Below are positions 4,348-9,775 of a stretch of DNA of 39,401 nucleotides, piece by piece. The stretch's first letter is position 1; each line of letters opens with the position of its first letter. This stretch comes from Fervidobacterium thailandense (GTDB lineage Bacteria > Thermotogota > Thermotogae > Thermotogales > Fervidobacteriaceae). A model generated the notes under the pieces. It saw only the letters and a list, made by a program, of their open reading frames with translations, was not told the origin of the DNA and did no database searches. The stretch lies in assembly GCF_001719065.1 (NCBI RefSeq), contig NZ_LWAF01000015.1:1-39401 (forward strand), read 5' to 3'. The translations under genes were made by a program, and so were the position numbers.

Positions 4348-4683
4348 TTAGCCTATGTGTCCCAAACGCCTGCCACCTATGACGTGAAAATGTATGTGTG
4401 GAATCTCCTGTCCAGCATCCTTTCCGTTATTCTGAACGATTCTGAAGCTCTCAAGTCCTTGTTCCTTTGTCACTTTCTTTATAACTTCAAATAGTCGCCA
4501 AAGTTTCTGCGAATCTTCGACTTGTAACTCGGTTACGGTTGGAACGTGTTTCTTGTATATGACTAGAAGATGCACAGGTGCTACGGGGCGTATGTCTTTG
4601 ATAACGATGAAGTCTTCATCTTCGTGCACTTTTTCGGAAGGTATCTGTCCATCGATAATCTTGCAAAATACACAGTCGGCCAT
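4348..4683 (-). CDS. HIT-family (HinT-like) nucleotide hydrolase
   Basis: A 111-residue histidine-triad protein of the Hint branch. It begins with the ADCVFCKIIDGQIPS segment typical of PKCI/HinT proteins and carries the triad HIHFHVIGGR near residue 95-104. Such enzymes hydrolyse AMP-lysine, AMP-NH2 and other purine nucleoside phosphoramidates. ATG 4683 has a strong GGAGGGG 7 nt upstream. It heads the operon with the phosphodiesterase, YigZ and aminotransferase, and its promoter must lie within the 3' end of the next upstream gene. Confidence 0.93.
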   Translation of the reverse strand: MADCVFCKIIDGQIPSEKVHEDEDFIVIKDIRPVAPVHLLVIYKKHVPTVTELQVEDSQKLWRLFEVIKKVTKEQGLESFRIVQNNGKDAGQEIPHIHFHVIGGRRLGHIG

Positions 4684-4738: not shown

Positions 4739-5953
4739 CTATTTCACATTATACAATCGTCCATTGGTTTGTACTGTTTTGCCGGCTTTTGTACGAAAGA
4801 TGTAACCGATACCGTAATCGAAGATATGAAATTCGTTAACTGTGGATAACTTCAGTTTCGATATACTTCCTCTCCCGGTGTTCAACTTTCCTACCGTAGA
4901 CCTTACGAAGTTCAGGACCGAAAGGTCGCTAATGTTTATGGACTCAAAGCGCGAGGAATAAACATTCACGTTGGACATCGTGGAAACGTTCATAGTCCTG
5001 ATGAATGAGTTGTTGATGTGTACGGTGGCACAATTATCGATCTCAAGTGTTTCGATGTTGGAATCAACAACGTAAACCGTGTAAGAGGAACTGATTCTTA
5101 CGTACGGTGCGTTGATTTTTCTTAGCACCACGTAGTTGGCGTAATTTAGGTTAATGTTTCCCACCGACACTTCGTTGAGACACACCAGCGCGCCGCCGTC
5201 TGAGGACACGTTTGTGTCGTTCGCTTGTCCCGAAAGGTACAGCATCCCCTTGTCCGTAACTTGGAATTCCCCAGTACCCAGAACCGTTACCTTCCCTATG
5301 GAATAGAAGAGCCCTTTTATAATCAGGGTTGAATTCAACGTATGTTGGACAACTGCACCATCTTCGGGAATTATCGCCGAGTTGTCCGGCACAAGCGAGC
5401 GACCAATTAACCTGTACGGTGATCTTGATGCAAGCAAGAACTTCCGCCCGGAAATATTCGTGAGCGGAACTTGAGAGTCAAGAATGTCGAGTTTTTCCAA
5501 AAGTGGCGGCGTACACAACGCATCGGCAACGTTCCCAGCTTCGTCTTCCAAAGTGACCAAAAGCGGCTCGTTTCTTAAACGGTATTCGTTGCCGAACGCT
5601 ATTGGCTTTCCTCCACGGTCTTTCGGATCGTAAAACCTAACCGGTGTGTCGGAAACGAAGGAGAACCCCTCCGTGAGGGCGGATATCCTCCCTTCCGGAG
5701 GGGTTGTGTCGATGGTGATTTTGTAATCTTTTCCGTCTACCTTGACTGAGAGGGAACCATCCTCCAGGAGCATGCCGTCCAAGAATGTAAATTGGTACTC
5801 TTTGCCGTTTACCAGGAATTTCTTTCCGACATCAAATCGTTTTGTACCGATAACCGTTGGCAGGTGTAAATCGGCTAAAAGAAGCACGGTAAGAGCTATC
5901 AGGAAAAGTATCGAAGCTTTTCGTATCAAACGAAAAGATTGAGCTGTCAGCAC
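4739..5953 (-). CDS. exported or membrane-anchored protein with beta-solenoid-like repeats, function unknown
   Basis: I do not recognise this 404-residue protein as a named family. An uncleaved-signal-like hydrophobic segment (about residues 13-28, ILFLIALTVLLLADL) follows a basic start, so it is probably exported or anchored. Residues 30-250 are rich in short beta strands, including a stretch resembling a small extracellular domain (DEAGNVADA). Residues 252-377 are seven contiguous repeats of exactly 18 residues without gaps (separate entry), the signature of a beta-solenoid. Cysteines are few. The start is GTG 5953, which shares one base with the ileS stop TAG, with AGGTG about 11 nt upstream; translation is probably coupled to ileS. 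A structural or surface-binding role is only a guess. Confidence 0.7.
   Translation of the reverse strand: MLTAQSFRLIRKASILFLIALTVLLLADLHLPTVIGTKRFDVGKKFLVNGKEYQFTFLDGMLLEDGSLSVKVDGKDYKITIDTTPPEGRISALTEGFSFVSDTPVRFYDPKDRGGKPIAFGNEYRLRNEPLLVTLEDEAGNVADALCTPPLLEKLDILDSQVPLTNISGRKFLLASRSPYRLIGRSLVPDNSAIIPEDGAVVQHTLNSTLIIKGLFYSIGKVTVLGTGEFQVTDKGMLYLSGQANDTNVSSDGGALVCLNEVSVGNINLNYANYVVLRKINAPYVRISSSYTVYVVDSNIETLEIDNCATVHINNSFIRTMNVSTMSNVNVYSSRFESINISDLSVLNFVRSTVGKLNTGRGSISKLKLSTVNEFHIFDYGIGYIFRTKAGKTVQTNGRLYNVK
4748..4753 (-). promoter_or_regulatory. possible -10 element for the HIT operon
   Basis: On the minus strand TATAAT occurs about 65 nt upstream of the HIT start codon, inside the last codons of the exported-protein gene. 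No good -35 is seen at the expected spacing, so support is only the -10 match and the position. Confidence 0.35.
4823..5200 (-). repeat. seven tandem 18-codon repeats (54-nt period)
   Basis: Translated units, each exactly 18 residues, in order: DGGALVCLNEVSVGNINL; NYANYVVLRKINAPYVRI; SSSYTVYVVDSNIETLEI; DNCATVHINNSFIRTMNV; STMSNVNVYSSRFESINI; SDLSVLNFVRSTVGKLNT; GRGSISKLKLSTVNEFHI. Columns 8, 13, 16 and 18 are almost always hydrophobic, column 6 mostly Val, and column 11 is Ser in units 3-7. The nucleotide sequence is diverged, so the repeat is conserved at protein level only, consistent with stacked beta-helix coils. Confidence 0.85.
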
Positions 5954-8697
5954 TATCTGCGTTCACCTCTTAGCACCGCACTGCACCTTGGACACGTTTC
6001 GGGATGACTTTCATCTTTACCGGTATCGGGGTGGTACTTCCAACAGCGTTGACATTTTTCTCCCTCGGCGTGTTTCACAAGAACATCCACAAACTGCCCT
6101 GTCACGGCACCCTCTAAGTTCTCGTCGGTTAACGTAACAGCGGAGACGATGAAGAATTCATCGAGGATTCCCTCGTACTTTTTAAGGAGCGCGGCAATCT
6201 CTTCGTTCTTAGGTTCAATATAGACATGTGCATCAAGTGAATGTCCGATAAGATCGGAAGCACGAGCCTCTTCAAGGGCTTTAAGCACATCATCACGTAC
6301 CAAGAGTAGGTGCTGGAACTCCTCAAGTAGTTGCTCGTCGATGAATTCTTTCCTGACCTCGGGCCAGTACTCGAGGTGAACGCTCTCGAAACGTTTTGCA
6401 GGGCTTTCTTGGTACGCTTCCTCGGCTGTGAACGGGATGATAGGTGCCAGAATCTTGATGAGTGCATCGAGAATGTAGTAAAGCACCGTTTGCGCCGAAC
6501 GTCTGTAGATCGAGTCTTTGGCCTCAACATACAGCCTGTCTTTGAGTATATCAAGGTAGACAGCGCTCAGTTCGGTTGTGCAGTATTTTACGGTTGCGTT
6601 GTAGACTTTTGAGTATTCGAATTCTTCGTAGTAGGATGTGACCTGTTCTATGTACTTCTGGAGTCTTCCGAGTGCCCATTTGTCCAGAGGCAATAGTTTT
6701 TCGTATGGCACGAGGTCTGCCTCGGTAAAGTCGTAGAGGTTGCTAAGCAGGTACCTAATGGTGTTTCTCAGTTTTCTGTAAACTTCCACCTGCTGTTCTA
6801 TGATGTTCTTCCCAACCCTGATGTTGTCGAAGAAGTCGGTACTGGCCACCCACAGTCTCAGAATATCGGCACCGTATTTGTTGACGATTTCCATCGGATC
6901 AACAACGTTACCCAAGGATTTACTCATCTTCCGTCCTTGTTCGTCCTTTATGAACCCGTGAGTTACAACGGCTCTGAACGGCGCAACGCCCGTTTTTGCC
7001 GTTGAAAGGAATATTGAGCTTTGGAACCAACCTCGGTGTTGGTCGTCTCCTTCCAAGTACAAGTCCACCGGGAATTTTTCTCCCTTTGAGCGTATAACGG
7101 CTTCCCACGAGCATCCAGAGTCGATCCACACATCAAGAGTGTCGTAAGTTTTATCAAATTCACTTCCACCACACTTCGAACATGTGAAACCTTCTGGAAT
7201 GAAGTTCTCGACGTCCATCTCGAACCACGCATCGGTACCTTTTTCCCTTACTATGTTTGCAAATTTCTCGATCACTTTTGCGTCGAGTATAACCTCACCG
7301 CACTGGCGACAAACCACAGCTGGGATTGGCACACCCCAGACTCTTTGCCTTGAGATCGTCCAGTCCGGCCTTTCTTGGACCATCGCGGTGATTCTATTTT
7401 CACCCCAGGCCGGATACCATTTGACATTTCTGATCTGCTCAAGGACCTTCTTTCTGAGATCGTTCTTGTCCACGGAGATGAACCACTGTGGCGTTGCTCT
7501 GAATATGACCGGGCCTTTACATCTCCAGCAATGTGGATAGCTGTGCTGGATTTTACCGTACTTGATGAGCGCACCGTTGTTTTTCAAGTCCTCAACAATT
7601 ATCTTGTTTGCATCCCAAATTTTTAGTCCCTCGTATTTTCCAGCTTCCTTTGTGAACCTTCCTTCATCGTCCACGGGTGAGAGAACCGGTAAGTTGTATT
7701 TCAGACCTGTCTGGTAGTCCTCCTCACCGTGACCTGGAGCGGTGTGGACACAGCCGGTACCATCTTCGAGTGTCACGTAATCGGCGAGCACAACGACCGA
7801 AGTTCTATCGTACAGTGGGTGCTTGGTGAGTTTACCTTCGAGCTCAGAACCAAGGAACTTTTCAACGACCTCAAAGTGTACACCAGTTTCAGCCGAGAAC
7901 TTTTGAAGCAGTCCCTCGGCTACGATCCAATACTCTTCACCAACTTTTATCTTGGTGTACGTGTACTCCGGATGAAGCGCGATAGCAACGTTTGCTGGGA
8001 TGGTCCACGGTGTGGTCGTCCATATGACGATGTACGTCTTTGGGTCATCGACCATCTGGAACTTCACGTAAATCGACGGTGATTCGTGATCGTGATATTC
8101 AATCTCGGCCTCGGCAAGGGCTGTTTTACAGCTTGGGCACCAGTAAACCGGTTTATTGCCACGGTACACGTTACCCGTTTCAACGAGCGTTTTGAAAACG
8201 TCCAAAATATGGTACTCGTACTCCGGATCAAGGGTGATGTAAGGATTATCCCAATCACCCTTAACACCGAGTCTTTTGAATTGTTCTCTTTGAACGTTTA
8301 CAAACTTCAGCGCAAAGTCTTTGCAAAGTCTTCTTATCTCAACTGGTGTCTTATTCTTTGCTTCATCTCCTAGCATCGTCGTGACTCGGTGTTCGATCGG
8401 GAGTCCATGTGTATCCCATCCGGGAACATACGGAACCCTGTAACCACGCATCGTTTTGTACCTGGTCACGAAATCTTTCAAAACCTTGTTCATCGCCGTT
8501 CCGAGGTGGATATCACCGTTTGCGTACGGAGGTCCGTCGTGAAGAAGATACGTCGGAGCATCCGCTCGATACTCCAACGTCTTTTCGTATATCTTCTGTT
8601 CTTCCCACCTTTTCAGTATCTCCGGTTCTTTGTTTACAAGGTTCGCTTTCATCTGAAAGTTGGTCCTCGGTAAGTTCAACGTCTCTTTGTAATCCAA
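5953..8697 (-). CDS. ileS: isoleucyl-tRNA synthetase
   Basis: Class Ia synthetase of about 914 residues that charges tRNA-Ile with isoleucine and edits valine. The nucleotide-binding HIGH motif appears as HLGT within [17 protein letters not shown] (about residue 64) and the second signature as KMSKS near residue 600. The CP1 editing region ([26 protein letters not shown]) is intact. The C-terminus has the zinc-finger C-x2-C ... C-x2-C of bacterial-type IleRS (CQRCWKYH and CPRCSAV). GTG 8706 is in frame but overlaps the ribosome-binding site; TTG 8697 lies 6-8 nt after GGAGGTG and gives the expected [10 protein letters not shown] start. The leader is only about 50 nt, with no room for a T-box. 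It is followed by the repeat protein with a 1-nt overlap. Confidence 0.95.
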
Positions 8698-8753
8698 CTT
8701 AGACACCTCCGAACATCGAAAGTTTGTTAGTTTATCTCATCCCACTGAACATC

Positions 8754-8807: not shown

Positions 8808-9164
8808 TTACATGTTAATCAAGCGGCTTATAACTTCTTTGAGCTCAGTGAGATCCGAGGATTTCACCACGTAAGCATCCGCGGCCCAAGAGGCCATATC
8901 GCTTTTGTAATGCGAATAAGCGGTCAGGATTACGAGTCGAACGTCGCGCTTAAGTTCTCTGAGCTTTCCAGCAAGTTCTAATCCATTCATCCCGGGCATC
9001 TCAATGTCAATAGTCACCAGATCGTAAGGTTTCTCCTGGAATTTGGCAAGCGCCGATTCACCGTTCTCCGCGGTGTCCACTTCGTATCCGGCGTCCATTA
9101 ACTCCTCAGCAACAAGCAATCGCATATTAGGTTCGTCTTCAACTACAAGGATTCTCTTAGGCAT
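8808..9164 (-). CDS. single-domain CheY-like response regulator
   Basis: A stand-alone receiver of 118 residues with no output domain. All signature residues are present: the acidic pair in VVEDEPN, the phosphoacceptor Asp in TIDIEMPG, the switch Thr in LTAYS and the Lys in VVKSSD. ATG 9164 follows AAGGGGGG by 7 nt; a TTG 18 nt earlier overlaps that site and is unlikely. It has its own promoter (9201-9230) but also lies directly behind the DRTGG-PHP-HATPase genes, so it may be both co-transcribed and independently expressed. It presumably passes a phosphorylation signal by protein contact; the cognate kinase is not identifiable here, since the neighbouring HATPase lacks a phospho-acceptor His domain. 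Confidence 0.92.
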   Translation of the reverse strand: MPKRILVVEDEPNMRLLVAEELMDAGYEVDTAENGESALAKFQEKPYDLVTIDIEMPGMNGLELAGKLRELKRDVRLVILTAYSHYKSDMASWAADAYVVKSSDLTELKEVISRLINM

Positions 9165-9200
9165 ATTGTAACCCCCCTTCAAACGAGCGTGGCTAAAGTG

Positions 9201-9230
9201 ATTATATCATAGAATCTTTTACTTTTTCAA
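9201..9230 (-). promoter_or_regulatory. promoter of the receiver gene
   Basis: On the minus strand TTGAAA (9230-9225) and TATAAT (9206-9201) with an 18-bp spacer and a TGA extended -10. It overlaps the last codons and the stop region of the HATPase gene. Confidence 0.7.
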
Positions 9231-9232
9231 CT

Positions 9233-9775
9233 TCAATTCTTTTCAATGGAATTCTCCAGTTCGTTCAAAAATTCCATCAGTATGCGTACCTTTTCCGGTG
9301 CATCCAAACTTCCGATGTAGCTCCTTATAGTTTCGGATCTAATTTCGTAGCAATCGTCGTTGTAGCACCTGATTATGTGCCACTCGATGCCATCGTTCAT
9401 GAGCAAAATCAGGAAAACACCGGGTAGGTCACCCACAGGCTGACAATCGATATGGTCCTTTCGAAATAGCACCTCGGTTTTCGTACCCTTTCCCAGTTCC
9501 GAGTTGATGCGCACGTAACCACCGGTCGCTTCGGCCGCTTGTTTTAGAAACGGAAGTCCAAGACCGACGCGTCTAATCTCCTTGTCACGCGTGGTTGTGA
9601 ACGGATCGAAAATTTTCTCCAAAATATCCGGCCTTATACCACCGGCATCGTCTTCCACGGAAAAGTAGAATTCGTTTTCCGTTTCTCTTACCGTTACTTT
9701 CACACTCTTAGCACCAGCGTTTATCGAGTTTTCCGCAATATCGTGTAAATGGTCCGATAAAGTCAAAAGCGCCAA
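9233..9775 (-). CDS. stand-alone GHKL/HATPase ATP-binding protein
   Basis: A 180-residue protein whose first ~115 residues are a histidine-kinase-type ATPase domain: N box HDIAENSINAGA, G1 box DDAGGI, F box DPFTTTR, G2 box VGLGLPFLKQAAEATGG and GKGTKTEV. There is no DHp/HisKA phospho-acceptor domain and no sensor. The DHID..PVGDL stretch after the ATPase core resembles the small ATPases that sit beside DRTGG and PHP genes in electron-bifurcating [FeFe]-hydrogenase clusters. The start is TTG 9775, 5 nt after AAGGTGAT. It is the third gene of the DRTGG-PHP operon, 21 nt after the PHP gene. It could be a serine-kinase/anti-sigma-type switch or a kinase partner for the receiver; sequence does not decide. 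Confidence 0.85.
   Translation of the reverse strand: MALLTLSDHLHDIAENSINAGAKSVKVTVRETENEFYFSVEDDAGGIRPDILEKIFDPFTTTRDKEIRRVGLGLPFLKQAAEATGGYVRINSELGKGTKTEVLFRKDHIDCQPVGDLPGVFLILLMNDGIEWHIIRCYNDDCYEIRSETIRSYIGSLDAPEKVRILMEFLNELENSIEKN

What the first reader, a model, noticed from the sequence alone, without database searches (positions are those of the whole stretch)
4739..5953. Exported protein with seven exact 18-residue repeats, translationally coupled to ileS
Residues 252-377 split without gaps into seven 18-residue units with aligned hydrophobic columns, as in a beta-solenoid. The protein has a signal or anchor helix and begins with a GTG sharing a base with the ileS stop. I know of no described family with this layout or a reason for pairing it with IleRS.
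Basis: partly seen in the sequence, partly recalled or inferred. Interest (0 to 1): 0.62.

Follow-up and report, generated by a model that had tools for sequence, protein, structure and literature searches.

The report
Phylum-wide exported Ig/beta-helix envelope protein
The gene encodes an exported protein with a stiff, coiled beta-helix rod that is inherited across most of the heat-loving phylum Thermotogota but has not been described as a family; its position next to ileS is a local accident, and it probably acts as a binding scaffold in the cell envelope.

Summary
ORF 5953→4739 (minus strand, 404 aa, GTG) shares one base with the ileS stop. It carries a strict 18-residue hydrophobic period (0 of 20,000 shuffles reach it). 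The regular array has eight units (252-395), not seven, plus part of a ninth. "Exact" means exact in length; the DNA is not tandemly repeated. AlphaFold2 gives a beta-solenoid with pLDDT about 98 behind a signal helix and an all-beta, Ig-like region. Structural neighbours are right-handed beta-helices, none close.

Pfam, NCBIfam and PDB have no matching sequence family. Profile searches find it in 82 of 103 Thermotogota genomes, and the gene tree recovers every taxonomic family (vertical inheritance). Residues 151-395 align without a gap in 20 species. Outer families have a lipobox (10 of 10); in the window's order it is gone or degenerate. Coil positions 5, 7 and 9 are conserved while outward positions on other faces vary, suggesting a binding or packing face.

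The ileS link is confined to the window's genus and Fervidobacterium. Elsewhere the neighbours are a metallo-beta-lactamase-fold gene, mnmE or a small methyltransferase, so a functional pairing with IleRS is not supported. Best reading: secreted envelope scaffold, ligand unknown.

The parts
4739..5953 (-). Whole gene: exported Ig-like + beta-solenoid protein, 404 aa, GTG start, TAG stop (4741-4739)
5963..5970 (-). Shine-Dalgarno-like AGAGGTGA, 9 nt before the GTG; in frame it is part of the codons for the IleRS C-terminal LRGERR
   Evidence: sequence; same motif whether or not this gene follows
5873..5953 (-). Signal peptide, residues 1-27 (cleavage after A27 proposed by inspection; no lipobox cysteine)
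   Evidence: sequence; helix 2-25 of low confidence in the model
5504..5872 (-). All-beta N-terminal region, residues 28-150, Ig-like (VDTTPP-type and DEAGN motifs)
   Evidence: strands, pLDDT about 90; Big_13/fn3 matches in distant homologues; aligned region
5201..5443 (-). Entry coils of the beta-helix, residues 171-251, irregular; includes the conserved LLxSxSPY motif
4769..5200 (-). Eight regular 18-residue coils, residues 252-395
4742..4768 (-). Partial ninth coil, residues 396-404 (longer in Fervidobacterium orthologues)
5953..8706 (-). ileS, isoleucine--tRNA ligase; upstream neighbour in this genus and Fervidobacterium only
4348..4683 (-). HIT-family protein; downstream neighbour in nearly all family members (the more conserved link, sometimes with purA between)

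Best explanation
A Sec-exported, non-enzymatic scaffold protein of the Thermotogota cell envelope. The N-terminal Ig-like region acts as a spacer, and the C-terminal beta-helix (right-handed type) of 18-residue coils forms a rigid rod. One face of the rod (the short strand at coil positions 5-9) is held conserved and presents a ladder of side chains to a partner, such as an envelope polymer, a sheath (toga) protein or another copy of itself. Ancestrally it was probably tethered as a lipoprotein; in the order Thermotogales it became a soluble periplasmic or secreted protein. Shown computationally: export-type N-terminus, fold by confident prediction, coil-length constraint, conserved face, vertical inheritance, lipobox presence and loss. 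Inferred: location beyond export, spacer role, absence of catalysis, binding as the function, and the ligand.
For: Fold: AlphaFold2 mean pLDDT 91-93, about 98 in the coils, pTM 0.88-0.89; Foldseek neighbours are mostly right-handed beta-helices. Constraint: no gap or insertion at residues 151-395 across 20 species down to about 25% identity. Conserved face: entropy at coil positions 5/7/9 is far below that at 12/14/15/17 (Mann-Whitney p = 3e-7 overall, 1e-9 within Fervidobacterium, 0.001 within Thermosipho-side genera), seen again in family f3 (p = 4e-4). No catalytic signature: invariant residues are mainly Gly, Pro, Ser, Leu and Asn spread along the chain. Distribution: 82 of 103 phylum genomes, usually one gene per genome; the gene tree recovers all families with the minimum 7 changes. 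Lipobox in 10/10 outer-family members, 0/20 in f1 and 0/5 in f3, with Lgt and LspA in all 15 genomes tested.
Against: No experiment or localisation data. No ligand or partner is indicated by synteny, because neighbours change between families. The face test was made after looking at the entropy table, so its p-values are descriptive; f3 and f2 are the partly independent checks, and the signal is weak in f2 (p = 0.09), where late coils carry insertions. Clean absence in Thermotoga shows the role is dispensable in that genus.
Confidence: 0.45

Rival explanations
1. A surface adhesin or outer-sheath (toga) decoration, displayed outside the cell rather than inside the periplasm.
For: Ig-like stalk plus beta-helix head resembles adhesins such as PfbA (3zpp in the Foldseek list); a lipid anchor in outer families; fast sequence divergence (long branches).
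Against: No surface-anchoring domain (SLH, autotransporter barrel) was found in the window protein or its homologues. The known toga proteomics used T. maritima (PMC3387000), whose genus lacks the gene, so there is no direct evidence either way.
Confidence: 0.22
2. A beta-helix carbohydrate-active enzyme (polysaccharide lyase, GH28-like hydrolase or epimerase) that trims an envelope or environmental polysaccharide.
For: Closest folds are such enzymes: GH28 exopolygalacturonase 2uve (E 3.6e-3), AlgE4 epimerase 2pyg (TM 0.53 to the solenoid), PL6 lyases.
Against: No match below E 0.001 in the PDB; no conserved cluster of Asp, Glu, His or Lys among invariant residues; strict 18-residue coils without the long loops that shape active-site grooves.
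Confidence: 0.12
3. A NosD-like periplasmic beta-helix that works with an ABC transporter in maturation or export of a substrate.
For: In family f2 the gene directly follows an ABC exporter gene; one distant homologue (L112) passes the Pfam NosD cut-off (26.0 against 23.6 bits); NosD of NosDFY (7o0y) is in the Foldseek list.
Against: The ABC neighbour is found in f2 but not immediately beside the gene in the other families; the ABC protein is a fused exporter, not separate NosF and NosY; the window protein has no NosD match.
Confidence: 0.08
4. A partner or regulator of IleRS, as the first reader's question about the pairing suggests.
For: One-base overlap here and short junctions (candidate starts from -3 to +30 nt) in the ten ileS-linked relatives.
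Against: It is exported; the link is limited to two genera; ileS stands apart in Thermosipho-side genomes; other lineages use other neighbours.
Confidence: 0.02

Closest known systems
Right-handed parallel beta-helix proteins (pectin-lyase-like fold; Pfam Beta_helix PF13229, NosD PF05048)
   Same: Parallel beta-helix of stacked coils after an export signal; Foldseek neighbours belong here; one distant homologue (L112) passes the NosD cut-off.
   Different: No direct Pfam match for the window protein; coils are a strict 18 residues, shorter than the usual 20-plus (general knowledge); no recognisable active site.
Bactofilins (PF04519)
   Same: Short beta-helix coils of about 17-18 residues (general knowledge).
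   Different: Bactofilins are cytoplasmic polymer-formers without signal peptide or Ig-like domains (general knowledge); no PF04519 match.
Adhesins with beta-helix heads, e.g. pneumococcal PfbA (3zpp)
   Same: Exported beta-helix.
   Different: Very weak structural match (E about 0.08, TM 0.43), no cell-wall anchor, no sequence similarity.
Thermotogales toga proteins OmpA1 and OmpB (PMC3387000)
   Same: Envelope proteins of the same phylum.
   Different: Those are an anchor protein and a porin; the present gene is absent from the genus in which they were characterised.

Membership tests
Right-handed beta-helix, pectin-lyase-like fold | Parallel beta-solenoid of stacked coils | tested here: met
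   AlphaFold2 models, (prediction, not a solved structure)
Right-handed beta-helix, pectin-lyase-like fold | Right-handed coil sense | tested here: inconclusive
   Coordinates not available; Foldseek neighbours are nearly all right-handed, but TM-scores are at most 0.53
Right-handed beta-helix, pectin-lyase-like fold | Match to a family profile (PF13229, PF05048, PF12708) | tested here: not met
   None for the window protein at E <= 1; NosD met only by the distant homologue L112
Bactofilin | PF04519 match | tested here: not met
Bactofilin | Cytoplasmic, no signal peptide | tested here: not met
   Signal-peptide-like or lipobox N-terminus throughout the family
Polysaccharide lyase or GH28 | Conserved catalytic acidic or basic cluster | tested here: not met
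   Invariant residues are mostly Gly, Pro, Ser, Leu and Asn, scattered
Polysaccharide lyase or GH28 | Enzymatic activity | not testable with these tools
   needs an assay
Bacterial lipoprotein | Lipobox cysteine after the signal helix | tested here: not met
   Met in 10/10 members of families f4, f7, f8, f9 and f11; not met in the window protein

The most novel reading that the evidence does not exclude
An undescribed, phylum-wide structural protein of the Thermotogota envelope, perhaps part of or under the toga, whose beta-helix face binds a repetitive envelope polymer along its length, and which lost its lipid anchor at the base of Thermotogales.
Probability: 0.25. Interest if true: 0.65.

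Novelty: new member of a known kind. Interest (0 to 1): 0.4.

Why it matters
The Thermotogota are defined by an unusual sheath-like envelope, yet few of its proteins are known. A mostly single-copy, vertically inherited exported scaffold present in most of the phylum but missing from the model genus Thermotoga would have been overlooked by work on T. maritima, and it is a ready candidate for localisation and knockout. The change from lipoprotein to free protein within one orthologous family is a clean evolutionary case.

Tried and rejected
Single-sequence scan of genome contigs found no relative; the alignment-based scan found five named loci, which supplied the alignment for structure prediction. 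PDB sequence search by phmmer and by profile gave nothing useful (best an IgA receptor fragment at E 0.0016 over the Ig-like region). The CBM_5_12 and GatB matches are chance (E 0.37 and 0.06). IleRS partnership was rejected on synteny. The Shine-Dalgarno as evidence for a special coupling was rejected, because the motif comes from the conserved IleRS tail. A hidden divergent copy at the Thermotoga mnmE locus was rejected: a methionine-synthase-like gene sits there (identified by eye from its sequence). The T. maritima toga proteome cannot inform on this gene. Literature searches found no paper on the family in the open library. Whether the family occurs outside the phylum was not settled.

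Full report
What is there. The gene lies on the minus strand, 5953 to 4739, and encodes 404 residues from a GTG. The ileS stop TAG (5955-5953) shares its G with that GTG, and AGAGGTGA ends 9 nt upstream. The period of 18 in residues 252-377 is not chance: F = 10.0 against 3.4 for the best of 20,000 shuffles, and it is the best period and position in the whole mature protein. Averaging hydropathy over 20 orthologues shows that eight units (252-395) follow the pattern and the one before does not. In the coil, positions 6, 8, 13, 16 and 18 are hydrophobic, position 11 is mostly Ser or Thr, and 10, 12, 14, 15 and 17 are polar. There is no DNA-level tandem repeat, so this is structural periodicity maintained by selection, not a recent duplication.

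Fold. With an alignment of the window protein and five named relatives (L067-L071), AlphaFold2 gives mean pLDDT 91 and pTM 0.88, with the solenoid near 98. The solenoid alone gives 92.7 and 0.89. Each regular coil has a short strand at positions 5-9 and a longer one at 12-18. Foldseek finds no PDB match below E 0.001; the nearest are right-handed beta-helix enzymes, tailspikes and adhesins (viral library). Handedness is inferred from those neighbours, not measured. Residues 28-150 are all-beta and carry VDTTPP and DEAGN motifs; distant homologues match Big_13 and fn3 in their N-terminal regions, so an Ig-like spacer is likely.

Family and history. Pfam and NCBIfam have no model for the window protein. 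A single-sequence search found it in 37 of 61 relatives; a 28-row profile found it in 36 of 45 genomes of the order and 82 of 103 of the phylum, usually one gene per genome. Some of the weakest of those hits cover only the Ig-like region and may be other proteins. The relatives with names are Thermotogota bacterium JZ-1, Fervidobacterium and Thermosipho, and the contig length of G056 equals that published for Kosmotoga pacifica (PMC5217533). The maximum-likelihood tree of 48 members has every multi-member taxonomic family as one side of a branch, with f1+f3, then f2, then the outer families: vertical inheritance with losses. Seven of seven genomes of genus g7 lack it. I take g7 to be Thermotoga, because the G031 contig of 1,860,725 bases equals the T. 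maritima MSB8 genome as I remember it. Their mnmE locus has a different upstream gene, so the absence there is clean.

Anchoring. All ten sampled members of families f4, f7, f8, f9 and f11 have a lipobox followed by mostly polar residues. None of the 20 f1 or five f3 members does. In f2 a cysteine, where present, sits inside the hydrophobic stretch. Lgt and LspA are present in all 15 genomes tested, so the absence in f1 is a property of this protein and not of the pathway. The outer-family proteins are also longer (589-755 residues) with extra N-terminal sequence.

Neighbours. In f2, f4, f8, f9 and f11 the gene is followed by a small methyltransferase (MTS) gene, the likely ancestral arrangement. 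In f3 it lies before mnmE, in g12 after a DUF2341 gene. In Thermosipho-side genomes it follows a metallo-beta-lactamase-fold gene. Only in the window's genus and Fervidobacterium does it follow ileS. The HIT gene downstream is conserved through nearly all of family f1 (not found in L035) and is the stronger link. In the five Thermosipho-side genomes checked ileS is followed by a terminator-like hairpin, yet the IleRS tail still reads VL(R/K)GERK with an SD-like codon run. The coupling therefore used a motif that was already there.

How it probably works. Across 20 species not one gap falls in residues 151-395 although identity drops to about 25%, so coil length is under strong constraint. The outward positions of the short strand (5, 7, 9) are much more conserved than outward positions 12, 14, 15 and 17 (p = 3e-7). 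The same holds in f3 (p = 4e-4) and weakly in f2 (p = 0.09). These positions were chosen after seeing the table for f1, so f3 and f2 are the better tests. That is the pattern of a rod with one working face. Without conserved catalytic residues I favour binding or scaffolding in the envelope. The ligand, the exact location and whether the face binds a partner, a second copy or its own N-terminal region are inference or unknown.

Verdict. A real and well-supported beta-solenoid family, undescribed in the libraries searched and broadly inherited in one phylum. It is built of known folds and its ileS link is incidental. Interest is moderate: an overlooked envelope protein rather than a new kind of system.

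Noticed in passing
L102 (G031) and L103 (G025), mnmE locus: The gene is cleanly absent in all seven genomes of genus g7 (apparently Thermotoga) and in g9; a methionine-synthase-like gene occupies the place upstream of mnmE.
   Followed up: yes
L104-L114 and L065 against f1 and f3 members: Lipobox present in all sampled outer-family members and absent in f1 and f3: a switch from lipoprotein to free exported protein within one orthologous family.
   Followed up: yes
L052, L055, L059, L060, L061 (family f2), C-terminal coils: The last coils carry insertions of 2-4 residues, so the strict 18-residue length is relaxed in f2 but not in f1.
   Followed up: partly
L050 6920-7774 and L054 8506-9390 (family f3): A DUF2341-domain protein gene directly precedes the solenoid gene, overlapping or abutting it; it may be a partner in that family.
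   Followed up: no
window 8808-9775, minus strand: A stand-alone receiver domain (124 aa) and a stand-alone HATPase_c protein (180 aa) sit together just upstream of ileS; the receiver stays next to ileS in Fervidobacterium.
   Followed up: partly
L115-L119 (Thermosipho-side ileS loci): The IleRS C-terminal motif VL(R/K)GERK encodes a Shine-Dalgarno-like stretch even where no gene is coupled downstream.
   Followed up: yes
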